This document shows, piece after piece, positions 32,050 through 50,251 of a stretch of 64,000 bases of DNA; positions within the stretch are counted from its first letter, which is position 1, and the number at the start of each line of letters is the position of its first letter. The stretch covers positions 29,085 through 93,084 of the IMG/VR virus record IMGVR_UViG_3300027710_000017; one strand, given 5' to 3'. Source of the DNA: a virus. The translations under genes and the position numbers were made by a program. Below the pieces are notes generated by a model, which was given only the letters and a program-made list of their open reading frames with translations, was not told the DNA's origin and made no database searches.

Positions 32050-32664
32050 CTAGAATCCTCTGATCTCCCAGCTGTCCCACTCTACTTTGTCGTAGTCAAC
32101 AGATGGGAACCAGGACTGACCCTTAAGTCCCATCCAAGCTTGAGAAAGATACATCGTTCCGTCTGTTACTGGAGTGATTTTTCTCATATCTTCCATGTTA
32201 CCTTCTTCAAAGATAACCAAGTCTCCAGGAGAATAATCTATTTCTGACTCTTCTTGAGTGTTTCCGTTTACAGCCATAAGCTTTCCGCCAGAGAAGTTGT
32301 TATTCCAAATAACATAGCCAACAAGGGTATGTGCTGGCCTGTTGATATCTGTTTGGGCTGGCTCCCCAAATTCAGGAATATACCTTGCGATGTAGTGCTT
32401 TGAAAACATTGGTGGCAAATATTCTAAATTTTTGTTGTTTTCTTTAACTGACTCATAAAATCTTTTAGAATACTTAGAAAAAATTTCTAGCATCTCATCA
32501 GAAAACTCTCCCCTTGTCCTAATGTGGAAGCTTACTGAATCTTGACTAAAAAGGTTGTCGTGAAGTGGTGGATGATTTTCTTTTGTATGAAAGTGAGAAG
32601 ACTTTGCATACTCATATACAGCCTGAGCATCTTTAGAAGAAATAAAATTCTTTATTAATATCAT
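32050..32664 (-). CDS. 2OG-Fe(II) oxygenase-like protein with degenerate active site
   Basis: 204 residues with the overall pattern of the prolyl-4-hydroxylase-type double-stranded beta helix (ARYIPEFGEPA, LVGYVIWNNNFSGGKLM, YSPGDLVIFEE). The expected H-x-D iron ligands appear as Q-T-D (in PAQTDIN), the distal His is replaced in DMRKITPV, and the 2-oxoglutarate-binding Arg position reads GTMYLSQAW. So catalysis by the standard route is unlikely. It may act as a binding protein or use other chemistry. The start ATG overlaps the TGA of the tiny gene before it. Compare intact copies at 41 kb and 48 kb. Confidence 0.7.
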   Translation of the reverse strand: MILIKNFISSKDAQAVYEYAKSSHFHTKENHPPLHDNLFSQDSVSFHIRTRGEFSDEMLEIFSKYSKRFYESVKENNKNLEYLPPMFSKHYIARYIPEFGEPAQTDINRPAHTLVGYVIWNNNFSGGKLMAVNGNTQEESEIDYSPGDLVIFEEGNMEDMRKITPVTDGTMYLSQAWMGLKGQSWFPSVDYDKVEWDSWEIRGF

Positions 32665-32798
32665 TTAAACGACATCCTTGAGTGAGAGTTGTTGCTTGGG
32701 CATCTAGAGCAAGTTTCTTGTTTAGCCTTTGTTACGGGACACTCTTGCACCATTAGGTTATGTCCAAAAATAAAGCATTTTATCTTATTAAAGATCAA
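32661..32798 (-). CDS. Tiny Cys/His protein, DUF1660-like, TTG start
   Basis: 45 residues read from TTG at 32798, chosen because GGAGGA lies 8 bases upstream. The sequence opens IKCFIFGHN after the start and continues with CPVTKAKQETCSRC, the layout of short phage zinc-ribbon proteins of the DUF1660 type (…FGH…CxxC). It overlaps the stop of the oxygenase-like gene before it and the start of the one after it (ATGA). Function unknown; the metal-binding pattern is visible. Confidence 0.55.
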   Translation of the reverse strand: MIFNKIKCFIFGHNLMVQECPVTKAKQETCSRCPSNNSHSRMSFK

Positions 32799-33438
32799 TC
32801 CAGGTTCCTCCAAAAAAGTTAGGAGTAATGTCATAAGCGATTGTGATTCTTGGCTTTTCTTCAAACCAATCATCCCTTCCGTGAGGGTGGCCAGTTTCTG
32901 ACAATATTGCACGATTGTTCTTGTTAATGTTTTCAAATATCTGACCAGATTTATCTATGTCATAGAATGTTTTTGATGGTTCTGCATTAACACAGTAATA
33001 TCCATGAAACACTGGGCTACCCTGACCACCCATGTGATCATGAAAAAACTGTTCATTTTTTAATGGATTTACTCCAAAATTAGCATCGTCAGTCTTTGGA
33101 TCTAGATTAAACCAGCCATTAAGATAAAACTTTGTGCCTTTGTCTATTGAGTAATACTCTGAAGCTTCTGCGACCATGTTACGAAGGGCATCTTGTAGTT
33201 TTTGGATGCCATCATACTCAAATGAGAAAATGTTGTAGTACTTACCTAGCTGTGTAGGGGCGCCAGTCTCCCTAGAAAAATTAGAAAGCTCTTCTGCTGG
33301 CATATTTAAAATATTATCGTTTAAGAAACTAGACAGTAGATTGTCTAAATAATTATAGAAATCTTCTAGGTCATTATCCAGATAGGCATCAAAGAACTTG
33401 TGGGCTGGCTTTGCATCGTTCAATTTAGTGGTATCCAA
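32788..33438 (-). CDS. 2OG-Fe(II) oxygenase-like protein (HDH type), paralog B
   Basis: About 216 residues if read from TTG at 33438; TTG at 33423 (overlapping the upstream TGA) is the other option, so the start is uncertain. It is clearly paralogous to the gene just before it: HKFFDAYLDNDLEDF, then WFNLDPKTDD, FFHDHMGG, FHGYYCVNAEPS, NRAILSETGHPHG and RITIAYD. The pattern H-D-H, a distal His in GHPHG and Arg in RITIAYD fits the putative dioxygenase family that includes 2OG-FeII_Oxy_5. Target unknown; hydroxylation of a protein is possible. Confidence 0.72.
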   Translation of the reverse strand: MDTTKLNDAKPAHKFFDAYLDNDLEDFYNYLDNLLSSFLNDNILNMPAEELSNFSRETGAPTQLGKYYNIFSFEYDGIQKLQDALRNMVAEASEYYSIDKGTKFYLNGWFNLDPKTDDANFGVNPLKNEQFFHDHMGGQGSPVFHGYYCVNAEPSKTFYDIDKSGQIFENINKNNRAILSETGHPHGRDDWFEEKPRITIAYDITPNFFGGTWIDL

Positions 33439-34073
33439 TGCTGTTCTTCGTTTAAGCCAAACTTTTGAATTTCTGATAACGGCAGAAGGTCGTAAGCTAT
33501 AGTTATTCGATCTCCGTCCCAATCCCAATCTCCCATAGCATGAGGATGCCCCATTTCAGAAAGAATTGCACGATTATCTTTATTTATGTTTTGGACCTCT
33601 TTGTCAAAAACAAGGTAATGGGTGGTTGATGGCTCTGCCTTTACTGAATAATATCCATGAAAAAATGGAGCTCCTCCTGGGCCGTGGTCATGCCAATTAA
33701 GCTTTCCGCCATTCTTTTTATTATTTATATTAAACCAACCCTGCATTAAGAATTGCTGGCTATCGAAATCTATTCCATAATACTCGCATGCCTCTTTAGC
33801 CATTTCTTTTATGGCTAACCCAAGCTTATAGATTTCTGGAGTGTGAAACTGAAAAACATTATACTGACGCCACTTCATTGTAGAAACGCTTTTTGATTCC
33901 TGCCAAGACTCATACTCTGTTAATGGTGTGACACCAATTAGCTCTGCGTTTTTAATTTTTTCATATCTGAGCCTTAGGTCTTGAGACAAGGTGTCTAGAT
34001 CATTGTCTAAATATCTCTCAAAGAATTTATGTGGCTGTGCAGATTTACTTAAACTGGGTAATGGGCTTTTCAT
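33420..34073 (-). CDS. 2OG-Fe(II) oxygenase-like protein (HDH type), paralog A
   Basis: 217 residues. Shared motifs with its downstream paralog: HKFFERYLDNDLD, WFNINNKKNGGKL followed by WHDHGPGG (candidate iron ligands), FFHGYYSVKAEPS, NRAILSEMGHPHA (distal His) and DRITIAYDLLP (Arg). It is preceded by an extended -10 (TGCTATAAT) 27 bases before the start. The pair suggests a recent tandem duplication, though the proteins differ in their middle segment. Confidence 0.75.
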   Translation of the reverse strand: MKSPLPSLSKSAQPHKFFERYLDNDLDTLSQDLRLRYEKIKNAELIGVTPLTEYESWQESKSVSTMKWRQYNVFQFHTPEIYKLGLAIKEMAKEACEYYGIDFDSQQFLMQGWFNINNKKNGGKLNWHDHGPGGAPFFHGYYSVKAEPSTTHYLVFDKEVQNINKDNRAILSEMGHPHAMGDWDWDGDRITIAYDLLPLSEIQKFGLNEEQHWIPLN

Positions 34074-34100
34074 AACAACTCTTTTCTATAACTTAATTAA

Positions 34101-34106
34101 ATTATA
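34101..34106 (-). promoter_or_regulatory. Extended -10 of oxygenase pair
   Basis: TGC-TATAAT with a ~27-base leader. Confidence 0.5.
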
Positions 34107-34118
34107 GCATAAAGGCTG

Positions 34119-34826
34119 TTAGATTGGATATCTTCCGCCACCCCAAGGGGCGAATCCGAATGGTGAGAATCCGAATGGTGAGAACCCGAATGGTGAAAAC
34201 CCGAATGCACCAAAGGGGGCAAATGAGAATGTTGTGGTAATGCTATTAGAAGCAGCTGAAGTTCCAGAGTTTCCATTAGCATTAGTTGCAATAACAGTAT
34301 ATGTCTGAGCTGTTCCCTGCTCTTGAGTAACATCAACAGTCGTGCTTGCGGTTGTGCCAGTTTTGCTGTCATCAGATGCCCAGGTGTAGCCAGTAATAGC
34401 CTTTCCACCATTTGCTGGGGCTGTCCATTCAACTCTATCGACACCTGCTGATGGGGAAGATGCAGTTGGTGCTGAAGGAGTCGCAGGAACAGTAGTAGCT
34501 GTAACGGATGCTGAAGCTGAAGAAGCTGGGCTTGTTCCATCAGCATTAGCTGCTGTTACAGTAAATGTATAGGCAGTATCTGACTGCAGTCCCTCTACTG
34601 TAAGTGGAGACGATGATCCAGTTGCTGTAAATCCGCCTGGAGATGATGTTACGGTAAACGAAGTGGCAGCATTTGGACCCTGAGCAGTAAAGGTTACTGT
34701 TGCAGCACCATTGTTAAATGCCCTAGAGGTTCCAACATCTGTAGCGGTTCCAATTAAAGGAGCCGCTGGTGCCAGATGGTCGTTCTGTGCAAGAGATTTC
34801 TTTCCCGCTCTTTTATTTGCTGCCAT
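34119..34826 (-). CDS. Double FN3 virion protein with FGFSP repeat tail
   Basis: 235 residues. Two fibronectin-III domains: residues ~25-110 (PLTVEGLQSDTAYTFTVTAANADG) and ~115-200 (TVDVTQEQGTAQTYTVIATNANG). The C-terminus is a four-fold FGFSP-type repeat ending in a Gly-rich APWGGG. FN3 domains on phage virions usually bind surface carbohydrates weakly, and the aromatic-Gly-Pro tail may drive oligomer or particle attachment (inference). AGGAG precedes the start. Confidence 0.75.
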   Translation of the reverse strand: MAANKRAGKKSLAQNDHLAPAAPLIGTATDVGTSRAFNNGAATVTFTAQGPNAATSFTVTSSPGGFTATGSSSPLTVEGLQSDTAYTFTVTAANADGTSPASSASASVTATTVPATPSAPTASSPSAGVDRVEWTAPANGGKAITGYTWASDDSKTGTTASTTVDVTQEQGTAQTYTVIATNANGNSGTSAASNSITTTFSFAPFGAFGFSPFGFSPFGFSPFGFAPWGGGRYPI

Positions 34827-34850
34827 TTATATATCTCCTAAATTTGTTAA

Positions 34851-36428
34851 TTATGCGGACAAGTCTCCGAAGACTACCCAAGTATTTTCTGCTCTCTTAA
34901 ACATTGTAGCAGATGACCACTGGGTACGTAGCTTAAGTCCAGGAGTAGAATTAACTGTAACTCCTGCTGCTCCAGCAATAGTAACCTGACCAGCACCTGT
35001 CTGTAGGATATCGATAGATGTTCCCACTGGATATGCAACAGATGCATTTGTAGGGATGGTTACAGTCACACCAGTAGCTGAAGAGACCTCTACGAGCTTG
35101 TCACGGTCTGTGAGAACCGTTGTGTAGGCACTAGTCTGTGCATTGATTTCAGTAAGTGATGGAACACCCTGCTTTACCTGAACTCCATCAGAGAATTCTA
35201 CTCCTCCGAGTCTTAGAGTATCATATCCAGCGTTTGTCAAATCTACAGTGTTAGATACTGGGTGTGGAACGTTTGATACAAGCTTCCACTTTTTGCCATC
35301 GCTTACGTCACGGAATAAACCAGAGTGCTTGTGGTCTCCCTCAGTTCCTCCAGCTTCACCTGTAGCAGCAAGGAATCCAACATCGACAGTGTCTGTTGTC
35401 CAGTTTCCGCTAGACATGTAAATTAGTGGGTCTGATATAGCAAGATCAGTTGCGTTTACGGTTGTAGTGGTTCCACCAACAACCAAGTTTCCAGTAATTT
35501 CAAGATTTGCAGTAGTGGTAGTTCCTGTAAATGTTGGATCTGCCAAAGGAGCCTTAGCGTCTAGCTGAGTCTGAATATTAGAGGTTACGCCATCTACATG
35601 GTTTAGCTCTGCAGTTGAAAGGGTTGCTCCGTCAAGAATGTTTACTTCTGCAACTGATGCAGTTACATCAATAACATCTGCTAGATTAACTGTTACATTG
35701 TTATCGGCTGCAGAAATAGTCTTGTTGGTTAGGGTTTCAGTTCCAGTTTTGGTTGCAAGAGCTGTAGTATCTGCAATTCCATGAACGTTAGTTGTATCTG
35801 AGTTGTGGGTGCTAAGATTACCATCTAGAGTAGTGTAGTTTGAGCCAACAGTGCTGGTTAGTGTTGAAAGGTCGCCCTCTAGGTCACCAACGGCGGTCTC
35901 TAGATCTCCAGCTCTTGTCTCTAGTAATCCAATGTCAGTGGTATTAGCTGTAGATGCTGTTTCTACAACACCAAGTCTTGTTTCGTGATCCTGAGCTTGA
36001 TCTCCTAGACCTTCGATGGAATCATTAACTAGTCCAATGTCATAGTTAACACTGGTAAAGTAGTCTGGATTATTATTAATTGCTGCTGCAATATCGTTTA
36101 TGGTTGGGACAGATCCCCAGGTAGTCCATGCCCCTGCAGAGTCATCGATGATGTTTCCTAGTTGATTTAATGGAACGTTTACAGTGCCATCTAGAGTAGC
36201 AACACCATTTGCAGCGGCCCTCTGGGTTAGTGGAATGTAGTCATCGATGGTTCCACCAAGTTCGGTTATTGTTAGGAAGTACTCTAGGTCTGACCAAGGG
36301 TTAGCTCCATCACCAATCTTAAATCTTCCAGTGTCGGTTTCAAAACCGATTTCACCAGCTTCAAGAGTTGGGTCTGCCGATGTCCACTGTTCCGCAGTTC
36401 CTCTGCGCTGTTGCATTCTAGTTGCCAT
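34851..36428 (-). CDS. Tail fibre protein with Mtd-type N-terminal domain
   Basis: 525 residues. The first ~50 residues (RMQQRRGTAEQW, EAGEIGFETDTGRFKIGDG) match the N-terminal domain of Mtd-like phage tropism and fibre proteins, which attaches the fibre. The middle has repeated Thr/Asn/Leu helices and beta turns of a trimeric shaft. The C-terminal ~90 residues (VTIPTNASVAYPVGTSIDI, GAGQVTIAG, NTWVVFGDL) are shared with the 43.4 kb protein. It is probably the distal receptor-binding part. Confidence 0.78.
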   Translation of the reverse strand: MATRMQQRRGTAEQWTSADPTLEAGEIGFETDTGRFKIGDGANPWSDLEYFLTITELGGTIDDYIPLTQRAAANGVATLDGTVNVPLNQLGNIIDDSAGAWTTWGSVPTINDIAAAINNNPDYFTSVNYDIGLVNDSIEGLGDQAQDHETRLGVVETASTANTTDIGLLETRAGDLETAVGDLEGDLSTLTSTVGSNYTTLDGNLSTHNSDTTNVHGIADTTALATKTGTETLTNKTISAADNNVTVNLADVIDVTASVAEVNILDGATLSTAELNHVDGVTSNIQTQLDAKAPLADPTFTGTTTTANLEITGNLVVGGTTTTVNATDLAISDPLIYMSSGNWTTDTVDVGFLAATGEAGGTEGDHKHSGLFRDVSDGKKWKLVSNVPHPVSNTVDLTNAGYDTLRLGGVEFSDGVQVKQGVPSLTEINAQTSAYTTVLTDRDKLVEVSSATGVTVTIPTNASVAYPVGTSIDILQTGAGQVTIAGAAGVTVNSTPGLKLRTQWSSATMFKRAENTWVVFGDLSA

Positions 36429-36468
36429 TTATAATAATCTCCTCATGGGTTCTTCCCATACTATTTTA

Positions 36469-36474
36469 ATTATA
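36469..36474 (-). promoter_or_regulatory. -10 of Mtd-type fibre gene
   Basis: TATAAT with a ~40-base leader containing a GGGAAGAACCC hairpin. Confidence 0.45.
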
Positions 36475-36481
36475 CAGCTTT

Positions 36482-36937
36482 TTAATTAAAATTATCCACT
36501 GGGCTTCCTCCGTCAAGTACGACAGACCATTCTGTTGTGGATGGTCCTCCGCCGTCTATTGGAGATCCCTGAGGATCATTAAAACTTCCACCGCTTGTAA
36601 AGGTGGTTACGATAAATCCTGTTCCGTCAATAGAAGTATCGTGGATGTGTTGTGGGATATTTAGGGTATCATCGATTGTTGCAACGGTCATCCACGATTG
36701 TCCATAGTAGACGTTAACTCTTTGAGTCAAAGTATCGAACCATAGACTACCGTTGACTGGTGATTCTGGAGCTGTAGATCCTACTGGCATACTACCAGCA
36801 AGTGCATCAACATATGACTTAGTTGCTGCATGAGTAGCTTCTGTTGGGTCAGAAACAACAACGGTACCGCCAAAGGTACCTCCAGCTGCAACGTTTAATC
36901 CGTTTTTGACCTTAAAGTCTTTGCTTGCAGTTGCCAT
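36482..36937 (-). CDS. Small fibre-related protein, 151 residues
   Basis: The N-terminus (SKDFKVKNGLNVAAGG, THAATKSYVDALAG) resembles the start and an internal repeat of the 762-residue fibre. The middle has SPVNGSLWFDTLTQRVNVYYGQSWM, a common fibre-tip pattern. Probably a short trimeric fibre component. AGGAG ribosome site. Confidence 0.65.
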   Translation of the reverse strand: MATASKDFKVKNGLNVAAGGTFGGTVVVSDPTEATHAATKSYVDALAGSMPVGSTAPESPVNGSLWFDTLTQRVNVYYGQSWMTVATIDDTLNIPQHIHDTSIDGTGFIVTTFTSGGSFNDPQGSPIDGGGPSTTEWSVVLDGGSPVDNFN

Positions 36938-36965
36938 CTAGTTCTCCTAATTAAAACTCTTTTGT

Positions 36966-36988
36966 GGGGGGTTTTTAAGGAACCCCCC
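36966..36988 (-). terminator. Strong hairpin between fibre genes
   Basis: GGGGGGTT/AACCCCCC with a 7-base loop, but no T-tract on either side; it may be a weak terminator or a leader structure. Confidence 0.45.
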
Positions 36989-37004
36989 GTAAACCCTTAA
37001 TTCA

Positions 37005-37010
37005 ATTATA
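37005..37010 (-). promoter_or_regulatory. -10 at end of long fibre gene
   Basis: TATAAT overlapping the fibre stop; reads towards the small fibre gene through the 36,966-36,988 hairpin. Confidence 0.42.
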
Positions 37011-39294
37011 CTAGCAATGTTCCAACAACAGTGATTGTAGAATCATTGTTGGCAGTTGTTACTAATAATCTTACGTTTGTTCCAGAAATATCTGCTGAAA
37101 CTGTTGATGCTGAACCATTGGTTCCAACAATTCCATATTCTGTAATTGCAATGTTGTCTGAAGTATCTAGGGTCAAAAGAACCTTAGAGATTTCAGTGTG
37201 TGTTCCATAGGCAACCTTTACAAGAAATTCTGCTGAACGATAGTCTGCCTTAGCAAATGCATATCCAGTGTGAATGCCTGCTGTTGTTGCATCTGATGTT
37301 GCTGCAACCTGTTTTGCAACTAAGTCAATCTCAACTGCAGCGAAGTTCGGAGTGGTTTCATTAAGAGCACCAATTGCACGAGCATCTGTGAAGTAGAGAT
37401 TTGTACTACCCTCGTCAAGGTCATCAGTTGTTGCATCACCAACGCCGCCTTCAGCGGTAATAGTAAGGCCTGAACCATTTCCTGTAATTGTAATGTTTGT
37501 AAGAGTTGCACCTGTCAAAAGATCTGCAGCTGAATTCTTAGCACGAGAATCTGTAAAGTACTGGTTTGTAGTACCTTCCTCAATGTCATCTGTGTCAAGA
37601 TTGCCAATTGCAGTATCTGTATATCCATTAGCATTTGTTTCTGCAGTTGCGGCTGAGCCTGCTGCATCGTAGTTAACAGCTAGGCCATCTGCATAGCTTT
37701 GTGCTGCAGTCTGTGCTGAAGAAGCAGAACCTGCTGGGTCATAGTTTGATGCAAGACCATCTGCATAAGCTTCAGCATTGCTTTCAGCGGTGTCAGCGTA
37801 GCCCTGTGCGGTTGTAAGAGCAGTTGTGATCTCTCCGTCAGTGTAGCTGTTTGCTGCAGTCTCTGCTGCAGAAGCTTCGTCAGAAGCAAATGTCCTGGTA
37901 GCTGTAATGGTGTCATCAATCTCGAAAGTATTGCCATCAAGAATTAGACCATTTCCAGCAAGGAAAGTTCCAGCACCAGAGAACTGGCTAAAGGAGAGTG
38001 CATCTGTACCAATGGTTGCTGGCTTTAGAGTCTGAACCCATCCAGTATTTGCATAAGTTCCAGCTGTTACAAAGACAAAGTCTCCGCTGTCTATTTCAGT
38101 TGCAGTATCAAAGTCAGTTGCACGTAATGCCTGGCCTGAAGCCTGAACAACATAGATACCATTTTCTGAAGCAGTTGTCTGATCCTTTACTAGAACACGG
38201 TCGCCAGTTACAAGAGTAACTCCCCCAGCAGTATCTCCATTCTCAAGACCAGTGGCAATTGAGATGTTTCCATTTGTTGCTACCCTTGCTGCCTCGTGAA
38301 CGTGAAGTCCTTCTGCAACTGCGTCAACATATGCCTTTGTTGCTGCGTGGTCTGCCTGAGTTGGTGTTCCAAGTCCAGAAACCTGGTAACCATCCATAAG
38401 TAAGTCGTCACCCATTGTCTTGTTTGTAAGAGTCTGAGCATCAGAAGTTCCTACAACATCTCCAGTTACCCCGTGAACTCCAGTAGTTAAGCCTGAGTGT
38501 GTACTTACAGCACCACTAGTCTCGTAGTCTCCTGCAAGATTATCTGCGTAGTCCTTAGCGTTCTGCTCAGCTGTAGCTGCTGCACCGTTTGCATCGTACC
38601 AACCATCTACTATTGTACGATCTACAATAACCTGCCCAGCACTATTCTTTAGGCCTTGTCCTGTATCTACAGAAATATCTCCTGCTGAATATGTAATTCC
38701 GTCTCCACCAGATAGGTGTGAGTCTACTCTTGCGTCTGTGTAGTAAAGGTTTGTAGTTCCTTCTGTGATTTCATCTGAGTTGAATGTAAGGTCAATGTTG
38801 TTAATTGCATCGTCTACATAACCCTGTGATGCAACTCTTTCGGAATCTAGGTTGTCAATATTTTCACCAACATAGACGTTTGCACTTGTTAGTTTGATGC
38901 TTCCACTAGTTGCATTAATGAAGACATCTCCGCCTACGCCTGCATTTAAGCGAACATCATCCTGTGCATTAAGTCTAATGTCTTCACCGTTTAGGACAAC
39001 ATCGTTACCGTCAACGTTAGAGATAACGATATCGTCATCATTAACAATAGTACCTACTGAGCCAATATTAAGTTGATTTACTGTAACTGTACCTGCAGCA
39101 AAGTCTCCATTGCCGTCACGAAGGACTAGAGTGTTTGGGGTATTGGTAGACTCTCCAGAACCACCAACTTGATCAATAATGTAATCAATGTCAGCCTGAG
39201 CTTTGGTAAGGATGTCCTCACCATTAATGGTACCTGTGGTACCTTCTACAACAAGACCGCTTTTGATCTTGAAGTTTTTATTTACTGTTGCCAT
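37006..39294 (-). CDS. Long tail fibre protein, 762 residues
   Basis: Starts with NKNFKIKSGLVVEG like its small neighbour. Three copies of an EGTTNLYYTDAR-type motif (also EGTTNQYFTDSR and EGSTNLYFTDAR) and Ala-rich YADGLASNYD repeats give the shaft periodicity expected of trimeric fibres. The C-terminal ~100 residues (SAEFLVKVAYGTHTEI, DNIAITEYGIVGTNG, VRLLVTTANND) are a known fibre tip pattern, shared weakly with the adjacent 148-residue protein. A receptor-binding role is likely. Confidence 0.8.
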   Translation of the reverse strand: MATVNKNFKIKSGLVVEGTTGTINGEDILTKAQADIDYIIDQVGGSGESTNTPNTLVLRDGNGDFAAGTVTVNQLNIGSVGTIVNDDDIVISNVDGNDVVLNGEDIRLNAQDDVRLNAGVGGDVFINATSGSIKLTSANVYVGENIDNLDSERVASQGYVDDAINNIDLTFNSDEITEGTTNLYYTDARVDSHLSGGDGITYSAGDISVDTGQGLKNSAGQVIVDRTIVDGWYDANGAAATAEQNAKDYADNLAGDYETSGAVSTHSGLTTGVHGVTGDVVGTSDAQTLTNKTMGDDLLMDGYQVSGLGTPTQADHAATKAYVDAVAEGLHVHEAARVATNGNISIATGLENGDTAGGVTLVTGDRVLVKDQTTASENGIYVVQASGQALRATDFDTATEIDSGDFVFVTAGTYANTGWVQTLKPATIGTDALSFSQFSGAGTFLAGNGLILDGNTFEIDDTITATRTFASDEASAAETAANSYTDGEITTALTTAQGYADTAESNAEAYADGLASNYDPAGSASSAQTAAQSYADGLAVNYDAAGSAATAETNANGYTDTAIGNLDTDDIEEGTTNQYFTDSRAKNSAADLLTGATLTNITITGNGSGLTITAEGGVGDATTDDLDEGSTNLYFTDARAIGALNETTPNFAAVEIDLVAKQVAATSDATTAGIHTGYAFAKADYRSAEFLVKVAYGTHTEISKVLLTLDTSDNIAITEYGIVGTNGSASTVSADISGTNVRLLVTTANNDSTITVVGTLLV

Positions 39295-39314
39295 TTTTAT
39301 CTCCTAGGGGTTAG

Positions 39315-39761: not shown

Positions 39762-39767
39762 GTTTTA

Positions 39768-40988: not shown

Positions 40989-41558
40989 TTACCAATCTAG
41001 CATTGCTCTAGCTTTGTCAAATGTGAGAAAGCTTGTTAGCGTGTATCGAATGTTTCCTTCTATTTTGGTTACCCCATGCATATGATCAGTGCTTGCTGGG
41101 TGAATGGCTAGCTTTCCTGGTTCGGGATTGATATAAAAATTATGCTGGGGATAAAAAGTATTGCCGCCCTTAAAATCATCATTTAAATAAATAACTATTC
41201 CATATTCTCTGTGCTTATGAAACTCAGAATGGCTGGTATTCTCCATATTATCTGAATGGGGGGGCTGCTCCATTCCTGGGAACCACCTAGTTAACTGAAG
41301 AAGATCTGCATAGATATCTTCGTTAATGGAGTAAGCCTCTTTTGCTATTTTTAAAATTTTTTCTTTAGTATTTTTTAAAACAATTCCCAAGGCTGTACTT
41401 TTTTGATTAATGTTATAAGCATTTATTACTCTGCCATCCCAAAAGCCTTCTCCTGGGCTTCCCCAAAGATCTGTGTTCTTGGCAAAACTTAAAATATCTG
41501 AAACTTCTTCTTTACTTAAGAAATTTGAAAACTCTTTTGCGTTTATCATTTCTACCAT
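40989..41558 (-). CDS. 2OG-Fe(II) oxygenase, intact active site
   Basis: 189 residues if started at ATG 41558, which overlaps the stop of the zinc-finger gene; ATG at 41549 is an alternative. It has the complete triad: H-x-D in PPHSDN, the distal His in DHMHGVTKI, and the Arg in IRYTLTSFL. LTRWFPGMEQ, YGIVIYLNDDFKGGNTFYP and PEPGKLAIHPAS match prolyl-4-hydroxylase-like phage dioxygenases. Expected to use O2 and 2-oxoglutarate to hydroxylate a protein or small substrate; the target is unknown. Confidence 0.82.
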   Translation of the reverse strand: MVEMINAKEFSNFLSKEEVSDILSFAKNTDLWGSPGEGFWDGRVINAYNINQKSTALGIVLKNTKEKILKIAKEAYSINEDIYADLLQLTRWFPGMEQPPHSDNMENTSHSEFHKHREYGIVIYLNDDFKGGNTFYPQHNFYINPEPGKLAIHPASTDHMHGVTKIEGNIRYTLTSFLTFDKARAMLDW

Positions 41559-41788
41559 TTGTGTATTGGGCACACTGCTTTTTCTAGTTTTGTTTTAAGT
41601 TCCATAAAACACCCACACTTTTTGCATTGCTTTGTGGCATTGATCAATTCTGGACATGATTTACAGATAGAAAATCTCTCGTCAGAAATAGCCTTATCTA
41701 CATATTCGGTTTGTGGATTAATTAAATCCCACGGCCTAGTCTCTCCAAGATTTTGCTTCCATCTTGCCCAAGGTGATAAATCAGACAT
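41552..41788 (-). CDS. Cys-rich zinc-finger protein, copy 1
   Basis: 78 residues with ICKSCPELINATKQCKKCGCFMELKTKLEKAVCPIHKW, a CxxC...CxxCxC...C pattern expected to bind zinc. It is paralogous to the 48.5 kb protein (CNTC...CRKCGCFMKLKSTLKQAECPIGKW). Coupled by TAATG to the gene before it and by overlap to the oxygenase after it. Function unknown; the repeated association with oxygenases is notable. Confidence 0.7.
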   Translation of the reverse strand: MSDLSPWARWKQNLGETRPWDLINPQTEYVDKAISDERFSICKSCPELINATKQCKKCGCFMELKTKLEKAVCPIHKW

Positions 41789-42796: not shown

Positions 42797-42801
42797 GCAC
42801 A

Positions 42802-43437
<636 letters not shown>

Positions 43438-43445
43438 TGCATCAC

Positions 43446-44800: not shown

Positions 44801-44818
44801 AAACTATCACCAATTCAA

Positions 44819-44824
44819 ATTATA
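44819..44824 (-). promoter_or_regulatory. Extended -10 of 44.8 kb fibre gene
   Basis: TGG-TATAAT with an 18-base leader. Confidence 0.5.
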
Positions 44825-45398
44825 CCACAGTAATCAGAAGGTGAATTGTTTTTTGCCCAGAGAGGGTTCCCCAAGATTCTGAACTATATTCAATTGCTTC
44901 AATTGATATTGGCAGAACTGACTCGTCTCCTGATACTACAACCTCAGAAACAGTTGTAGCGACAGAAACTGGGTTTTCGTTAATAACATTTACCTGGACA
45001 TTAAAGTTTTCTGCTGGAATGTCTCCAACAAGTCCTTCTGGAACAATAAGAGAAACTGGAACGTTTATAGACGCACTCCCATCGACAAACGTCCTTGCAA
45101 AATTTTGACTATAAGTATTAGTGGTCAATTTAAAAATTTTAACCCAAGATGGAACACCGCCGTCTGCCGAGATATACTGGTATAAAAACTGATACTCATC
45201 GTCTGAGGCTAAGGCATTTATGTATGTGTCATATGGCTTTAGGTCTTCTGGAAGTGTTGAGTTTTCGTCTGGCTTGCCTAGACCATAAAATATTAAACTT
45301 CCACGGTCGCCCTTTGGGCCAAGGTCAACATCCACACTTATCTCAGCTGGGCCACCAAGCACCACTAGATCATCCGAAGATAGCAGGACCTCAGCCAT
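44820..45398 (-). CDS. Virion protein with short collagen-like N-terminus
   Basis: 192 residues. Residues ~22-32 contain DLGPKGDRG, a short collagen-like tract as in the next upstream protein, and the C-terminal half is beta-rich (VNVINENPVSVATTVSEVVVSG). Its ATG overlaps the upstream stop (ATTAG on the plus strand). Likely a fibre or baseplate appendage. Confidence 0.65.
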   Translation of the reverse strand: MAEVLLSSDDLVVLGGPAEISVDVDLGPKGDRGSLIFYGLGKPDENSTLPEDLKPYDTYINALASDDEYQFLYQYISADGGVPSWVKIFKLTTNTYSQNFARTFVDGSASINVPVSLIVPEGLVGDIPAENFNVQVNVINENPVSVATTVSEVVVSGDESVLPISIEAIEYSSESWGTLSGQKTIHLLITVV

Positions 45399-45757
45399 TA
45401 GTCGCCAGACATCCTAGTAACATCTGCACGAACAGTAACGTCACCCGTCAAAAGTGTATAAATTTTATCTGCTGATCCAGCTACTGGCTTCTTAATTTGA
45501 ACATCGTAAACGTAGCTGGTGCCTGCGGTAAGAGTTTTTCCTACACCACCAGGAATTTTGCAAACAATTGCATTATCTACAATTTCAGCAAGGCACTCAA
45601 ATTGAGTAGCGCCTGACCCACGTGCAGTTGCAATAAAAAACTTAGTGGAATAGCCAGTCAGATCAAAGGCTGAGCCATTGGTTGTTTTGGGGTAGATGTT
45701 AAACTCATACAGGTCACCCTGATAGTATCGAATATTGTAATTTCCTGGAAATGCCAT
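45398..45757 (-). CDS. BppU/LtfC-like beta-sandwich protein, copy 2
   Basis: 119 residues from ATG at 45757. This start is chosen because TATAAT sits exactly 6 bases upstream and the alternative ATG six bases earlier would lie inside the promoter. FNIYPKTTNGSAFDLTGYSTKFFIATARG, CLAEIVDNAIVCKIPGGVGKTLTAGTSYVYDVQIKKP matches the BppU-type N-terminal Ig-like domain. Related by layout to the 40.0 and 46.6 kb proteins. Confidence 0.7.
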   Translation of the reverse strand: MAFPGNYNIRYYQGDLYEFNIYPKTTNGSAFDLTGYSTKFFIATARGSGATQFECLAEIVDNAIVCKIPGGVGKTLTAGTSYVYDVQIKKPVAGSADKIYTLLTGDVTVRADVTRMSGD

Positions 45758-45763
45758 ATCCAT

Positions 45764-45769
45764 ATTATA
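45764..45769 (-). promoter_or_regulatory. Extended -10 (BppU-like copy 2)
   Basis: TGC-TATAAT 6 bases before ATG; decides the start codon of that gene. Confidence 0.6.
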
Positions 45770-45775
45770 GCATGA

Positions 45776-46480
45776 CTAAGAGACGGAAATGCCAATTGAT
45801 TGCATCTCAACTAAGGCATCAAGGTCTGTTCTAATTTGTGGCACGGCACCACCAAGTCGAATAAGGTCATTCTCTATATAAAATTTTTGAGTGATTGACA
45901 TGTCGTACTCAAACTGATACTTTAGCGTTCCAGCAAAAGTTATTACAGATGTCTCTGAATTTGGGAAATATGTCCTGACCCATAGCTCAGTATTACTAGA
46001 CAATGTCTCAATTGAAAAGTTATAAGTCACACTAACCTGGGACCCTATGGCTAAGCCCCTGAGGTTTATCCTTTTGGATTCATTATTATAAAAACTAGCA
46101 GTATTTCTTGGCATATAAGCCTCTAGGTCTTTTGTCTTGTCTGAGTTTATAGAAACCTGAACCCAACCGTCTATTCCCCTATCGCCGCCAAGTTTGATTT
46201 GCTGCGGACTCTTGCTAAAGTATTTAGCCCAGCCTGCGTCTTGTTCATAAACTGGAAGATAGGTCTTTCCATCTTTTCCAGGAGCACCCTTTGGACCTGG
46301 CTCTCCACGATCACCCTTTTCACCACGCTCGCCTATTGGCCCTCTGTCGCCTTTGAGGCCTTGGGGACCTGGCACTGCGATATAAAAAGATTCGACTTCC
46401 TGCTTTTGAACTTGCTCTGCTAATTTAGCGTAGTTGGGCTTTTTATTAGATGGGAAGTCCATGCTTTTACTGATGGCCAC
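45776..46480 (-). CDS. Collagen-like virion protein
   Basis: 234 residues from GTG at 46480, chosen because AGGAG lies 5 bases upstream. Residues ~36-70 contain about eleven uninterrupted Gly-X-Y triplets (for example GLKGDRGPIGERGEKGDRG and GEPGPKGAPGKDGK), which should form a triple helix, followed by a beta-rich domain (GRVWISS-like strands, LWVRTYFPNSETSVITFAG). Triple-helical spikes occur on several Gram-positive phages. Five X/Y prolines are in positions a prolyl hydroxylase could act on, which ties it to the oxygenase genes nearby (inference). Confidence 0.75.
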   Translation of the reverse strand: MAISKSMDFPSNKKPNYAKLAEQVQKQEVESFYIAVPGPQGLKGDRGPIGERGEKGDRGEPGPKGAPGKDGKTYLPVYEQDAGWAKYFSKSPQQIKLGGDRGIDGWVQVSINSDKTKDLEAYMPRNTASFYNNESKRINLRGLAIGSQVSVTYNFSIETLSSNTELWVRTYFPNSETSVITFAGTLKYQFEYDMSITQKFYIENDLIRLGGAVPQIRTDLDALVEMQSIGISVS

Positions 46481-46488
46481 TAAGACTC

Positions 46489-46575
46489 CTACTTTGTTGT
46501 TTTAAAAATCTTTCCAGCAACCTTGATTACTGGAGGTATTACAGGAATATTGTTAGAAATTTTTATAACTGGCAT
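46489..46575 (-). CDS. 28-residue peptide gene
   Basis: Begins MPVIKISNNIPVIPPVIKVA and ends in KTTK. ATG at 46575 overlaps the stop of the upstream gene (TAATG) and the stop lies 9 bases before the next GTG start, which is how the whole operon is packed. Small, Pro/Ile-rich and hydrophobic; function unknown. Similar tiny genes fill gaps between tail genes of many phages. Confidence 0.4.
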   Translation of the reverse strand: MPVIKISNNIPVIPPVIKVAGKIFKTTK

Positions 46576-46949
46576 TATAGACTTCCCGACACGTCACCGA
46601 ATACGGTTATTGTTCCAATTAGCGGTGTCCATACCAGACCATCTACAACAACCTGTAGATCGAAAGCAAGCTCTGCCACTGTAGAAGTATAGCCAGCTCC
46701 CCAGAATTCAGTAATCTCAGATGGTGCAGTAATGACCACATAGCCATTTCCAGCCTCTACTTGCAGCTCATCAAGAATATCGCCACGGAAGTCGTAGCTG
46801 GTAGCGGTAAATTCCCAATCGGAAGTATCGAATGAAGTAGATTCGTCGTTTTCGTAGAAATCTACCCTAAGTGAGGCGGTATCGCCTCTAACTACCTGCC
46901 ATTTAACATTTGCAGGATTAGCACCAAAAATTTCAGGAGAGCAAGACAT
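46575..46949 (-). CDS. LtfC-like beta-sandwich protein, copy 3
   Basis: 124 residues from ATG at 46949; the upstream in-frame ATG lies inside the -10 TATAAT, which ends exactly 6 bases before the chosen codon. WQVVRGDTASLRVDFYENDESTSFDTSDWEFTATS and VWTPLIGTITVFGDV follow the motif order of the 40.0 kb paralog. Probable anchor domain of a fibre. Confidence 0.7.
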   Translation of the reverse strand: MSCSPEIFGANPANVKWQVVRGDTASLRVDFYENDESTSFDTSDWEFTATSYDFRGDILDELQVEAGNGYVVITAPSEITEFWGAGYTSTVAELAFDLQVVVDGLVWTPLIGTITVFGDVSGSL

Positions 46950-46955
46950 ATTAAT

Positions 46956-46961
46956 ATTATA
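46956..46961 (-). promoter_or_regulatory. -10 for leaderless LtfC-like copy 3
   Basis: TATAAT 6 bases before ATG 46949; the earlier in-frame ATG lies partly inside it. Confidence 0.6.
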
Positions 46962-46969
46962 CATACCAA

Positions 46970-47266
46970 TATAAACAAAAAGCTAGTACCTGAAGCGGTG
47001 GGTATGAGAGACTCACTTCAAGTACTAGCCTAATTATTATATCAAAGAAAATAAATTAAATTGTAAAAGTCAGGAAAGTAAAGGGTTGTTATACAAAGTT
47101 TATAAAATCGTTATATAAGAGTTATAGAAATTTGCCTACTTTACGAACAAAAATCTGGTAGGATGTATATATTAATATATTACTTTATATCTTTAATTCT
47201 TATATATATTATATATATTAGCTTTATATCTAGATATCTTATATATTATATATAGTAGATTATAGA
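46970..47266. other. AT-rich non-coding region
   Basis: Apart from the terminator at 46,982-47,029, about 240 bases are almost only A and T, with runs of TATATA near 47,165-47,260 and no supported gene. It could be an easily melted site or a scar of rearrangement; nothing else is recognisable. Confidence 0.5.
46982..47029 (-). terminator. Hairpin terminator after the small membrane protein gene
   Basis: 16-base arms and a 16-base loop. The two mismatches become G-U pairs only in minus-strand RNA. A TTTTTGTTT tract follows on that strand, so it terminates leftward RNA before the LtfC-like gene. Confidence 0.65.
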
Positions 47267-47533
47267 TTATTTGCTATTAGAAGACAAGTGATCAATTAAC
47301 GTGTCAAATATCTTGTCTATCTTGGTTTCAAGCTTATTGTGTTGAGAATCCATTTTTTTCTCAAGCTCGCCCTGTTTTGATTCAAGTCTGGTTATTTGAT
47401 CTTTCATACTAGATCCACTATTTGGTCTTAGCTCATCGAGATAGTGTTTTACGAGCCAACGGATAAACATCGCTACTGATGTTATGATTGTTATAATTCC
47501 TACTGCTACAGCAACCCAAGATTCTACTGACAT
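47267..47533 (-). CDS. Small membrane protein with coiled coil (holin-like candidate)
   Basis: 88 residues from ATG at 47533. The first ~30 residues contain one clear transmembrane helix (SWVAVAVGIITIITSVAMFIRWLV). The rest is a charged coiled coil (ITRLESKQGELEKKMDSQHNKLETKIDKIFDTLIDHL). This matches short BhlA/XhlA-type holin-associated proteins, but the lysin lies far away at 63 kb, so the role is open. TATAAT lies 9 bases before the ATG. A terminator follows. Confidence 0.6.
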   Translation of the reverse strand: MSVESWVAVAVGIITIITSVAMFIRWLVKHYLDELRPNSGSSMKDQITRLESKQGELEKKMDSQHNKLETKIDKIFDTLIDHLSSNSK

Positions 47534-47565
47534 AATAGAATAATTATACATATATTTTTTTACAT

Positions 47566-48162
47566 TTATAGCTTCCAGAACGGATATTCTGTTACCCAAA
47601 CTGGCAATGAGTAGCGATCTTCAGAAATTTCATTTACGGTATGTAAATACTGTGGTGGTCTTGATGGAAATACAACTAAGTCACCTGGCTCTGGAGTATA
47701 TTTATGACCTAATTTGGTAAACTTTAGTTCTCCACCACTCTTCATTTTATTAAGATAGATTACTCCACCATATTTTAATTGCATGTTTGCACCGCCGTCG
47801 TTATCTACATGCTCTTCTATTTTGCCACCAGCGACTTGTTTTGCAAGATAAAACGCACAGACCATTAAGTCTTTTTTATTTTTATAAACTTCTTTTACAC
47901 TTGCTTCAATTCTTGGGAAGAGGTCGGATCTAAGCATTGGCTCAATATCCTTGATTTTTTCTAACGTCAGATCTGACTTTTCTTTACGATATCCATCTTT
48001 TCCAAACATAAGGACTTTGCGCTCAAACTTAGCGCCATTCCACTCTTTAAGCATGTCGTCAATATTATCTATATAATCAATAAAAAATTTAGTTTCTTCT
48101 GGAGACAGAAAGTTTTTAATAACTTTTATCTCTTCGATTCCCATATCTTCTTCAAATTTCAT
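47566..48162 (-). CDS. 2OG-Fe(II) oxygenase, intact active site
   Basis: 198 residues. All ligands are visible: H-x-D in EEHVDND, distal His in PPQYLHTV and Arg in EDRYSLPVWV, with YGGVIYLNKMKSGGELKF and EPGDLVVFPSR. This is the prolyl-4-hydroxylase type. First gene of the leftward block, with its start codon 6 bases after TATACT. It is divergent from the 48.2 kb operon, and both promoters sit in a 45-base gap. Confidence 0.82.
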   Translation of the reverse strand: MKFEEDMGIEEIKVIKNFLSPEETKFFIDYIDNIDDMLKEWNGAKFERKVLMFGKDGYRKEKSDLTLEKIKDIEPMLRSDLFPRIEASVKEVYKNKKDLMVCAFYLAKQVAGGKIEEHVDNDGGANMQLKYGGVIYLNKMKSGGELKFTKLGHKYTPEPGDLVVFPSRPPQYLHTVNEISEDRYSLPVWVTEYPFWKL

Positions 48163-48168
48163 ATAATT

Positions 48169-48174
48169 AGTATA
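48169..48174 (-). promoter_or_regulatory. Extended -10 (oxygenase at 47.6 kb)
   Basis: TGG-TATACT 6 bases before ATG. Confidence 0.6.
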
Positions 48175-48195
48175 CCACAGCAGCCTATTTAGTGA

Positions 48196-48201
48196 TATAA
48201 T
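48196..48201 (+). promoter_or_regulatory. Extended -10 (48.2 kb gene)
   Basis: TGA-TATAAT 6 bases before ATG; divergent from the oxygenase promoter. Confidence 0.6.
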
Positions 48202-48207
48202 TGAAAA

Positions 48208-48399
48208 ATGACAAAAGATGAGCTTGTTGAGATTATGTCCAATTCAGTCGAAGAAACAAATAAAAAGCTCATAACCAATATAAAGACTCCGCCCGAAGTT
48301 TATGAAGAGTCGCTAAAATGGAACAGACCCAGCCTGGACTATATAAACGAAATGATAGTTGAAGAGCTAGTTCGACGAAAAATAGTTTCGGTCGAATAA
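48208..48399 (+). CDS. Small helical protein, paralog A of the 48.7 kb gene
   Basis: 63 residues. It aligns with the 48.7 kb protein: KDExVxxMxNxVxExN near the start and LVxxxxV at the end (LVEIMSNSVEETNKK and MIVEELVRRKIVSVE). Unknown function; small charged helical protein. Its ATG is 6 bases after TATAAT. Confidence 0.62.
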   Translation: MTKDELVEIMSNSVEETNKKLITNIKTPPEVYEESLKWNRPSLDYINEMIVEELVRRKIVSVE

Positions 48400-48495
48400 A
48401 GCTCGATTTTAAATTCGGCGGAATATAGAGATACCAATGCACCCAAACCCACAATATGTGATATATGTGCAATATTTCTAATAACCGAAATATGG

Positions 48496-48501
48496 TATAA
48501 T
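48496..48501 (+). promoter_or_regulatory. Extended -10 (zinc-finger copy 2)
   Basis: TGG-TATAAT 6 bases before ATG. Confidence 0.6.
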
Positions 48502-48507
48502 TTTCCT

Positions 48508-48705
48508 ATGGGAGACGTCACTTTCTTTGATCTTTTTGATCCAAACCAGCCTAGGTCTGATAAGGAACTTATCGAATCCCGCCTAGCCATATGCAATACA
48601 TGTGAGTGGTTTGATAAGCGCATGGTTAAATGTCGCAAATGTGGCTGTTTTATGAAATTAAAAAGTACGCTTAAACAGGCGGAATGTCCGATTGGTAAAT
48701 GGTAA
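48508..48705 (+). CDS. Cys-rich zinc-finger protein, copy 2
   Basis: 65 residues with CNTCEWFDKRMVKCRKCGCFMKLKSTLKQAECPIGKW, the same spacing of Cys as copy 1 at 41.6 kb. Expected zinc-binding fold. Its -10 TATAAT is 6 bases before ATG. The next gene overlaps its stop, as copy 1 overlaps an oxygenase. Confidence 0.68.
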   Translation: MGDVTFFDLFDPNQPRSDKELIESRLAICNTCEWFDKRMVKCRKCGCFMKLKSTLKQAECPIGKW

Positions 48706-48893
48706 TGTATAAAGATGAAGTAGTGGCATTAATGACAAATGCTGTCAACGAGATGAATAGACTAAGAGCTATTCAAATGGGTATTCATTCTGCTGGCATT
48801 GAAGATAGTATTCAGGGTATGCAGGAAGAACTAAATCATGTCAATAGTATGTTATATGACACACTAGTAGACAATGGAGTTATAAGGACTTAA
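48705..48893 (+). CDS. Small helical protein, paralog B of the 48.2 kb gene
   Basis: 62 residues (YKDEVVALMTNAVNEMNRLRAIQMG, ELNHVNSMLYDTLVDNGVI) like paralog A. ATG at 48705 is chosen because it overlaps TAA of the zinc-finger gene (TAATG); an ATG two codons upstream also exists. Unknown role. Confidence 0.62.
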   Translation: MYKDEVVALMTNAVNEMNRLRAIQMGIHSAGIEDSIQGMQEELNHVNSMLYDTLVDNGVIRT

Positions 48894-48959
48894 AGTCTTT
48901 ATTCAGGCTGTGGAGTTTGTTTTCCACATGTACAATTACCGTTACACATGGTTATATGA

Positions 48960-48965
48960 TACACT
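48960..48965 (+). promoter_or_regulatory. -10 of 49.0 kb oxygenase pair
   Basis: TACACT 6 bases before ATG; a TGTGGA/TCCACA hairpin lies at 48,909-48,928. Confidence 0.5.
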
Positions 48966-48971
48966 ATAATT

Positions 48972-49631
48972 ATGAGTGATGTTATTGATTTTAAACCCTT
49001 TGTAACCAAAGACTTTCTACCCCAAGAAATTTACGATGTAGTATATGATGCTGTAAATTCTCAAATTTCTAAGAATCTAGCAGAAGGAAAAGAGGCCTAT
49101 GCTGAACCTTTTGTAAAGGCTGGATCTAATGGATTTATTATCCTTTTTGAGTGTGTTCCAGATAGTGTATATGCCTTTTTAAAAGAAAAGATCTCAGAAG
49201 CTGTTGGATTTGAGATAGCTACTCCTGGATTGCTTTTTGCTAGATATACACACGATTCAGGATATGCCCCTAGATTATTACCACATGCAGATAGGGCTGT
49301 AAAAACTCAAGCCATTACTATGACAGTTGAGCTAGATTCTACTCTAGATTGGGATATTTATATTGAACATGACAGATACCAGCTAGAAAAGAATGATGCA
49401 ATATTCTTCTCTGGATCTCATCAAACACACTTTAGGCCATACCAAAAATTTGAAAAAGATGATTACTACGATATTTTACTGATTCAGACAGCAATCGATT
49501 TACCAGATCAGGATGAGATTACAGAAGAAAACCACTTCCAGTATATGGACAAGAGAGCTGGAGACTTTATCGTAAAGTATAAGGACCTTCTAGAACAGTC
49601 TTTAGATGATAGAGGAGACTTGCGTAATTGA
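48972..49631 (+). CDS. 2OG-Fe(II) oxygenase-like protein, paralog C
   Basis: 219 residues. FARYTHDSGYAPRLLPHADRA has candidate H-x-D ligands (HAD), then a beta-strand run ITMTVELDSTLDWDIYIE, and FFSGSHQTHFRPY supplies a distal His. No Arg like that of the classic type is obvious, so catalysis needs proof. Paralogous to the following gene throughout. -10 TACACT sits 6 bases before ATG; a TGTGGA/TCCACA hairpin lies just upstream. Confidence 0.68.
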   Translation: MSDVIDFKPFVTKDFLPQEIYDVVYDAVNSQISKNLAEGKEAYAEPFVKAGSNGFIILFECVPDSVYAFLKEKISEAVGFEIATPGLLFARYTHDSGYAPRLLPHADRAVKTQAITMTVELDSTLDWDIYIEHDRYQLEKNDAIFFSGSHQTHFRPYQKFEKDDYYDILLIQTAIDLPDQDEITEENHFQYMDKRAGDFIVKYKDLLEQSLDDRGDLRN

Positions 49632-50251
49632 TTAACTTATTAGAGCTAAAGCCTTTTGTTATCAAGAACGTTCTTTCTGAAGAAGAGTATTCCTATGTCT
49701 ATGATTGTGTTAATAAGGGCTTTCCAGAAGAGATCAAACCTGATCTACCCTCAGATAATAGAGAATATCCAGAATACTTGAATGTTCCAGATCTTGGATA
49801 CCTGGCTTATATTAAAGGTTTTAGTGAAGACTTTAAAAAATCTATAAAAAATACTTTAGAAAATAGCTTAGGAATTCCACTATCTTTACCAGATATCCAC
49901 TTTGCCAGATACACTAGCAAAACTGGACATAAGCCAACTTTAAAACCACATTATGACATAGGCGTTAGACATCCATCAGTAACTATCTCTATTCAAATGG
50001 ACACTACTCTGGATTGGGATTTACATGCATACGATGGGTCTGCTACCCTTTCAAAAAATGAAGCTATGGTGTTTTCAGGATCACACCAAGTCCATTGGAG
50101 ACCTCCAAAAGACTTCTCTGAGGATGACTACTTTGACATTATGGTGTGCCAGCTAGCAGTTAGCGATGAGATCTTGTCTGAAGATCATGCAGAATATATG
50201 TCTATTATTAATGCAGCTGCAGGTGCTGACTATTCCGCTAGATATATGTAA
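49628..50251 (+). CDS. 2OG-Fe(II) oxygenase-like protein, paralog D
   Basis: 207 residues from TTG at 49628, which overlaps the TGA of the previous gene (ATTGA). Motifs match paralog C: FARYTSKTGHKPTLKPHYDIG (H-x-D as HYD), ITISIQMDTTLDWDLHAY-type strand and FSGSHQVHWRPPKD with a distal His. Two adjacent copies suggest tandem duplication. A terminator region follows at 50.3 kb. Confidence 0.68.
   Translation: MINLLELKPFVIKNVLSEEEYSYVYDCVNKGFPEEIKPDLPSDNREYPEYLNVPDLGYLAYIKGFSEDFKKSIKNTLENSLGIPLSLPDIHFARYTSKTGHKPTLKPHYDIGVRHPSVTISIQMDTTLDWDLHAYDGSATLSKNEAMVFSGSHQVHWRPPKDFSEDDYFDIMVCQLAVSDEILSEDHAEYMSIINAAAGADYSARYM

What the first reader, a model, noticed from the sequence alone, without database searches (positions are those of the whole stretch)
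32050..50251. Seven 2OG-Fe(II) dioxygenase-like genes near collagen-like and polyproline virion genes
Genes at 32.05, 32.79, 33.42, 40.99, 47.57, 48.97 and 49.63 kb have the dioxygenase pattern, three or more with probable full ligand sets. The same region encodes a collagen-like protein (eleven Gly-X-Y triplets), 13- and 11-residue proline runs, and FGFSP repeats. A phage hydroxylating its own appendages, as prolyl hydroxylases do for collagen, would explain the cluster. The link is inferred from proximity.
Basis: partly seen in the sequence, partly recalled or inferred. Interest (0 to 1): 0.85.

Follow-up and report, generated by a model that had tools for sequence, protein, structure and literature searches.

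The report
Phage prolyl-hydroxylase arrays beside tail repeats
A bacterial virus carries a set of iron-dependent oxygenase genes, most like protein prolyl hydroxylases; across its relatives these genes sit beside, and change together with, tail proteins ending in long phenylalanine- and proline-rich repeats, which suggests that the virus chemically modifies its own tail.

Summary
The seven genes exist, but they are three families and not all equal. O4 and O5 (family A, PF13640) are P4H-like with full ligands. O2 and O3 (family B) are tandem paralogs; the O3 model has the oxygenase fold. O6 and O7 (family C) have the fold, but lie on the opposite strand, and their family recurs beside RecA. O1 belongs to a subclade with eroded ligands. 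The 93-kb record holds at least eleven such genes.

I tested it with scans of IMG/VR seeded from the portal protein and from repeat DNA, so not biased towards oxygenases. Tail proteins ending in FGFSP-type repeats are followed by family B. Those ending in FFPPFFP repeats adjoin arrays of 5-10 family-A genes. Slots without such repeats have none. Repeat presence and type agree with oxygenase presence and family in all 79 distinct portals. FFP repeats are almost pure Phe and Pro, so Pro is the likely target.

Collagen-like genes show no such association. Best reading: phage hydroxylases modify proline in low-complexity tail repeats, sometimes followed by glycosyl- or sulfotransfer. No chemistry was tested, and joint transfer of neighbouring genes remains a rival.

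The parts
34119..34826 (-). Tail-region protein with fibronectin type III domains, ending in FGFSP-type Phe/Pro repeats; proposed substrate
   Evidence: fn3 PF00041 40 bits; C-terminal FGFSP repeats; a homolog is present in 79 of the O3-seeded loci
33420..34073 (-). O3, family B 2OG oxygenase directly downstream of the repeat gene; proposed repeat hydroxylase
   Evidence: phrog_2696 1.5e-8; invariant HxH..H..R; AF2 pLDDT 86.5 and DSBH fold; at least 199 relatives
32788..33423 (-). O2, family B paralog of O3, TTG start overlapping the O3 stop
   Evidence: ORF listed as 32788-33528
32050..32664 (-). O1, family A relative with lost Fe ligands (probable pseudo-oxygenase)
   Evidence: PF13640 17 bits, sub-threshold; groups with A by profile; ligands eroded across the O1 subclade
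42802..43437 (-). PASTA-domain protein with 13- and 11-residue proline runs; second proposed substrate
   Evidence: PASTA PF03793 28.8 bits; relatives at this site carry polyP, PTPTP or FGF repeats
41552..41788 (-). DUF6171 zinc-ribbon-like small protein between the repeat gene and O4
   Evidence: PF19668 41.4 bits; recurs between FFP gene and oxygenases in relatives
40989..41573 (-). O4, family A, P4H-like 2OG oxygenase
   Evidence: PF13640 35.6 bits; nearest solved structure Bacillus P4H; HxD..H..R complete
47566..48162 (-). O5, family A, P4H-like 2OG oxygenase; target uncertain
   Evidence: PF13640 42.1 bits; HxD..H..R complete
45776..46480 (-). Collagen-like protein, 11 Gly-X-Y triplets; association with oxygenases not supported
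   Evidence: PF01391 30.5 bits; GXY genes 0 of 10 outside the FFP scan
48972..49631 (+). O6, family C 2OG oxygenase, opposite strand; substrate unknown
   Evidence: phrog_2954; invariant HxD..H
49628..50251 (+). O7, family C 2OG oxygenase, paralog of O6
   Evidence: AF2 pLDDT 87.6; PDB matches to AlkB homologs and PHD2
28319..32017 (-). LamG-like 1232-aa protein that bounds the oxygenase slot downstream
   Evidence: PF13385 sub-threshold 15.4 bits; conserved next to the portal

Best explanation
The late-strand oxygenases of families A and B (O2, O3 and O4; perhaps O5) are protein hydroxylases that this phage uses to hydroxylate residues, most likely proline, in the low-complexity C-terminal repeats of its own tail proteins (FGFSP repeats at 34119-34826, polyproline at 42802-43437). 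They would act in the infected cell before or during assembly, using host 2-oxoglutarate, O2 and Fe(II). The hydroxyl groups would make a Phe/Pro-rich tail tip more polar or fix its shape, and in some relatives would serve as attachment points for sugars or sulfate added by neighbouring glycosyl- and sulfotransferases. Shown: genes, fold, ligands, and physical and type-specific coupling of oxygenase and repeat. Inferred: activity, substrate, residue and purpose.
For: (1) Portal-seeded scan, not biased towards oxygenases: slots with FGF or FFP repeats have oxygenases in 13 of 14 cases, slots without in 1 of 21; Fisher p=1.3e-7. L185 and L239 were left out of the tree because their slots could not be labelled with confidence. 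(2) On a portal tree of 79 distinct rows (O3-seeded and portal-seeded loci together, three rows relabelled by hand), repeat and oxygenase presence each change 9 times with no discordant row. Repeat type (FGF/FFP) and family (B/A only) each change 4 times with none. The window's own close relatives include FGF/BBA and FFP/AAAAAA phages. (3) Scan seeded only with FFPFFPxFPP DNA: 448 oxygenases downstream in 617 kb against 5 upstream in 389 kb. Dereplicated, 45-fold, and 67 of 69 loci with over 2.5 kb downstream. Arrays follow the repeat at two different genomic sites, 38 and 8 of those assigned. (4) Seven other intervals between conserved late genes hold 0-2 oxygenases each, against 222 in the repeat slot; at least one B gene per locus there is by selection. 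(5) Family A as a profile matches only protein hydroxylases and the PKHD type in the PDB: P4H, P3H1, PHD, LH3. 428 of 431 A members in FFP loci have the full motif. (6) FFP repeats are 53% Phe and 43% Pro, and Pro is in every FGF and FFP region. (7) Sulfotransferases, GT61, an epimerase and a PF11397 GlcNAc transferase sit in the same slots of relatives.
Against: No biochemistry or proteomics. Neighbouring genes can be transferred together without acting on each other. Restricted to starred branches the independent-pair tests have only 4 and 3 pairs and cannot reach significance. RNR-II also sits in this slot in relatives, so it accepts unrelated cargo. Exceptions exist: L259 and L314 have long FFP repeats without an array. 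In some cyanophages A-type oxygenases sit next to the gp41 primase-helicase. Some B-linked repeats are only 4-6% Pro. Why one tail needs 5-10 paralogs is unexplained.
Confidence: 0.6

Rival explanations
1. Hitchhiking host-range cassette: tail-tip repeats and oxygenases recombine together as one variable module, but the oxygenases act on something else (host surface polymers, small molecules, nucleotides).
For: The slot lies between tail and head modules and also takes up RNR-II; glycosyl- and sulfotransferases there could act on host or phage polymers; gene content is mosaic on the portal tree.
Against: Arrays follow FFP repeats at two separate sites; slots with RNR-II but no repeats have no oxygenase (L192, L206, L219); loci with only 5 copies of the motif lack arrays (L266, L272, L356); family A is nearest to protein hydroxylases.
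Confidence: 0.25
2. Metabolic role as usually proposed for cyanophage 2OG oxygenases: drawing down 2-oxoglutarate to steer nitrogen metabolism, or nucleic acid repair.
For: Proposed for cyanophages (PMC3037559); family C models resemble AlkB homologs about as well as PHD2 and three C copies lie beside an exonuclease and RecA at 19546-21521 of the record.
Against: Does not explain the repeat-type matching of families A and B or the 45-fold enrichment downstream of FFP genes.
Confidence: 0.1
3. Collagen-type hydroxylation: the oxygenases act on the Gly-X-Y protein at 45776-46480.
For: Family A resembles collagen P4H; O5 is about 1.1 kb from the collagen-like gene.
Against: Gly-X-Y genes have no oxygenase within 3 kb downstream in 10 of 10 cases outside the FFP scan; in the FFP scan the collagen-like gene sits beside the FFP gene.
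Confidence: 0.05

Closest known systems
Prolyl 4-hydroxylases of the single-domain type (Bacillus P4H 3ITQ/5HV0; algal P4H 2JIG/3GZE)
   Same: Family A has the HxD...H...basic motif and its profile scores Bacillus P4H best among solved structures; from general knowledge, algal P4H acts on proline-rich repeats
   Different: The basic residue is Arg in O4/O5, whereas P4Hs use Lys (from memory); here the enzymes are viral, in tandem arrays, next to a Phe/Pro repeat tail protein
Cyanophage 2OG-Fe(II) oxygenase clusters (S-RSM4; S-SCSM1 with 24 genes, PMC9602691)
   Same: Several divergent 2OG oxygenases in one phage; in S-RSM4 they lie between a tail fibre gene and gp13, flanked by glycine-rich tail-type proteins
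   Different: T4-like cyanophages; no FGF/FFP repeats seen in the S-RSM4 stretch read; explained in the literature as metabolic (PMC3037559)
PF13759-like 2OG oxygenases (structural-genomics entries 3BVC, 2RG4)
   Same: Best PDB fold matches of O3; HxH motif
   Different: 12-14% identity, no Pfam hit of O2/O3; that these entries belong to PF13759 is from memory
Hydroxyproline glycosylation (plant extensins; Skp1 prolyl hydroxylase with PF11397-type GlcNAc transferase)
   Same: Hydroxylase, repeat or target protein and glycosyltransferase acting in sequence; a PF11397 gene lies beside oxygenases in L153 (over the cut-off) and L084 (below it)
   Different: The glycosyltransferase link is seen in relatives, not beside the window's repeat genes; chemistry untested

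Membership tests
2OG-Fe(II) oxygenase superfamily (DSBH fold) | Double-stranded beta-helix fold | tested here: met
   O3 and O7 AF2 models match 2OG oxygenases; O4/O5 by PF13640
2OG-Fe(II) oxygenase superfamily (DSBH fold) | HxD/E...H iron triad | tested here: met
   O4-O7 met; O2/O3 as HxH...H (ligand role inferred); O1 NOT met
2OG-Fe(II) oxygenase superfamily (DSBH fold) | Arg/Lys that binds 2OG | tested here: inconclusive
   Present in O2-O5; in O6/O7 the conserved Arg is two residues after the distal His; absent in O1
Prolyl 4-hydroxylase | Sequence closest to P4H among solved structures | tested here: met
   O4 alone 2.5e-4; profile A4 1.1e-14 to Bacillus P4H
Prolyl 4-hydroxylase | Lys as the 2OG-binding residue | tested here: not met
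   Arg in O4 and O5; Lys as the defining residue is from memory
Prolyl 4-hydroxylase | Hydroxylation of peptidyl proline | not testable with these tools
   needs an enzyme assay or mass spectrometry
Collagen hydroxylation system | Enzyme gene coupled to a Gly-X-Y substrate | tested here: not met
   0 of 10 Gly-X-Y genes outside the FFP scan

The most novel reading that the evidence does not exclude
A virus-encoded post-translational modification system dedicated to its own tail: arrays of up to 10 prolyl-hydroxylase-like enzymes, matched in family to the repeat type, hydroxylate a tail tip of almost pure phenylalanine and proline, with sugars or sulfate added afterwards, giving a variable and chemically diversified tail surface.
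Probability: 0.4. Interest if true: 0.92.

Novelty: new variant of a known kind. Interest (0 to 1): 0.8.

Why it matters
Phage 2OG oxygenases are among the commonest unexplained auxiliary genes in aquatic viruses and are usually called metabolic. A substrate written next door, whose type predicts the enzyme family, turns a vague label into a testable enzyme-substrate pair. It would also be a virion hydroxylation system not found in the literature searched here, and a source of enzymes for modifying Phe/Pro polymers.

Tried and rejected
Collagen as the substrate: rejected on association. 'Seven active enzymes': rejected for O1. 'One cluster': rejected, because O6/O7 are on the + strand and their family recurs beside RecA. 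Direct tblastn of O3 and O6 against isolated phages found nothing at 1e-5, and O5 likewise. No relative of O3 in bacterial genomes. The FFP DNA pattern in bacterial genomes gives 18 chance-like single hits, not repeats, so no host was found that way. Literature searches for virion proline hydroxylation by phages returned no report; library limited to open-licence PMC papers. Module-boundary hotspot alone was considered; rejected as sufficient because arrays follow FFP at two sites.
Full report
WHAT IS THERE. The window is 29085-93084 of a 93,084-base IMG/VR virus record. Its portal is about 47% identical to Streptomyces phages such as Yaboi (Stanwilliamsviridae), so it is probably a phage of an actinobacterium; this host assignment is inference. 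It is a tailed phage with a 2973-residue ORF that I read as the tape measure protein. Pfam passes only O4 and O5, both PF13640. Iterated profiles made from relatives give three families: A (O1, O4, O5), B (O2, O3) and C (O6, O7). Four more members lie outside the window in the same record: one A at 756-1358 and three C in tandem at 19546-21521 beside an exonuclease-like gene and a RecA-like gene.

ARE THEY OXYGENASES. AlphaFold models of O3 (pLDDT 86.5) and O7 (87.6) have the double-stranded beta-helix and match solved 2OG oxygenases: O3 best to 3BVC and 2RG4, then others including PHDs; O7 about equally to AlkB homologs and PHD2. Iron ligands are complete in O4 and O5, invariant as HxH...H in B and HxD...H in C. 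O1 has lost them, and its 23 aligned subclade members show the same erosion. A profile of family A retrieves from the PDB only protein hydroxylases and the PKHD type: Bacillus P4H first (1.1e-14), then prolyl 3-hydroxylase 1, PHD2, algal P4H and lysyl hydroxylase LH3.

IS THE LINK TO VIRION PROTEINS MORE THAN PROXIMITY. O3 has at least 199 relatives in viral contigs. In the loci kept, the fibronectin-III gene is adjacent upstream, and its C-terminus carries FGFSP, VFSFTPF or similar repeats, in many relatives followed by what looks by eye like an intein/Hint-type domain ending in His-Asn. Because that scan started from O3, I made scans that did not start from an oxygenase.

First, the portal. 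Slots between the tail genes and the LamG gene that hold FGF or FFP repeats have oxygenases in 13 of 14 cases; slots without have them in 1 of 21 (Fisher p=1.3e-7). L239 is cut off before the repeat gene, and L185 has family A and C genes just beyond the slot as defined; both were left out of the tree. FGF-type repeats go with family B. FFP-type repeats (FFPPFFPFFP...) go with arrays of family A and no B. On a tree of 79 distinct portals, which pools the O3-seeded and portal-seeded loci and in which three rows were relabelled by hand after inspection, repeat presence and oxygenase presence each change nine times, and type and family each change four times, with no discordant row. On well-supported branches only, 4 and 3 independent pairs remain, all concordant but too few for significance.

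Of 120 loci, 118 have the repeat in frame. 448 oxygenases lie downstream in 617 kb against 5 upstream in 389 kb. After dereplication the enrichment is 45-fold, 67 of 69 loci with more than 2.5 kb downstream have them, and loci with over 9 kb have 5 to 10. 428 of 431 of these A members keep the full motif. Arrays follow the repeat at two different places in the genome. Loci with only five scattered copies of the motif have no array in the sequence held (L266, L272, L356), while two with long repeats lack one (L259, L314).

Third, DNA of the FGF repeat: 23 of 30 such genes have an oxygenase within 3 kb downstream, against 63 of 253 other genes in the same loci. In two loci (L087, L132) the FGF repeat has moved to another tail gene, and there it is followed by the DUF6171 protein, a family-A oxygenase and sugar-modifying enzymes. 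Intervals between other conserved late genes hold almost no oxygenases.

WHICH RESIDUE. FFP repeats are 52.6% Phe and 42.8% Pro with little else. FGF repeats always contain Pro, Phe and Ser, though some are only 4-6% Pro. Of these, proline is the residue that known protein 2OG oxygenases hydroxylate (general knowledge). The sequences thus point to proline, by elimination and not by assay.

WHAT ELSE ACTS THERE. In relatives the same slots hold sulfotransferases (PF03567, PF00685), GT61, a GDP-mannose-dehydratase/epimerase-type gene, and PF11397 GlcNAc transferase in L153. A sub-threshold PF11397 gene lies beside the family-A oxygenase at the left end of this record. This would fit hydroxylation followed by glycosylation or sulfation.

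LIMITS. Co-transfer of neighbours could produce the same pattern; RNR-II in the same slot shows that unrelated cargo is accepted. In some cyanophages A-type oxygenases sit beside gp41, so the family alone does not prove a virion target. Collagen is not supported as substrate. O6/O7 and the other C genes may do something different, nucleic acids included. Literature held here explains phage 2OG oxygenases as metabolic or as DNA repair (PMC3037559, PMC9602691); I found no report of virion hydroxylation by phages.

Noticed in passing
L183:1833-3188, L298:3619-5094 and many others: Repeat tail proteins of relatives continue after the repeats into a domain that looks like an intein/Hint autoprocessing domain (starts with Cys, ends in His-Asn); absent in the window's copy. 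Pfam gave no Hint hit for L183, so this is by eye.
   Followed up: partly
L020:10792-12822 and equivalents in many relatives: B12-type ribonucleotide reductase (PF17975, PF21995) inserted between oxygenases O2 and O1.
   Followed up: partly
L016:2721-3437, L020:8529-9254, L076:11387-11986: Sulfotransferase-type genes in the oxygenase slot of relatives (Pfam run on the L016 and L076 genes; L020 by likeness).
   Followed up: partly
G000 19546-21521 (L164:2047-4022): Three tandem family-C oxygenases beside exonuclease- and RecA-like genes, outside the window.
   Followed up: partly
G000 756-4323 (L084): Cassette of a family-A oxygenase, a PF11397-like glycosyltransferase, DUF6065-like genes and an unknown gene at the left end of the record; the same kind of gene set follows FGF genes in L153.
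   Followed up: partly
L210:2474-3906 and FFP arrays: DUF6065 (PF19541) and a phrog_7084 protein alternate with oxygenases in FFP arrays; function unknown.
   Followed up: no
window 34851-36428: Tail gene with an Mtd_N (major tropism determinant) domain; no search for a diversity-generating retroelement was made.
   Followed up: no
PHROGs 2297, 274, 2954, 3531: Families named 'DNA endonuclease', 'DNA endonuclease V' and 'ferrochelatase' match these 2OG oxygenases; the names look like mis-annotations.
   Followed up: partly
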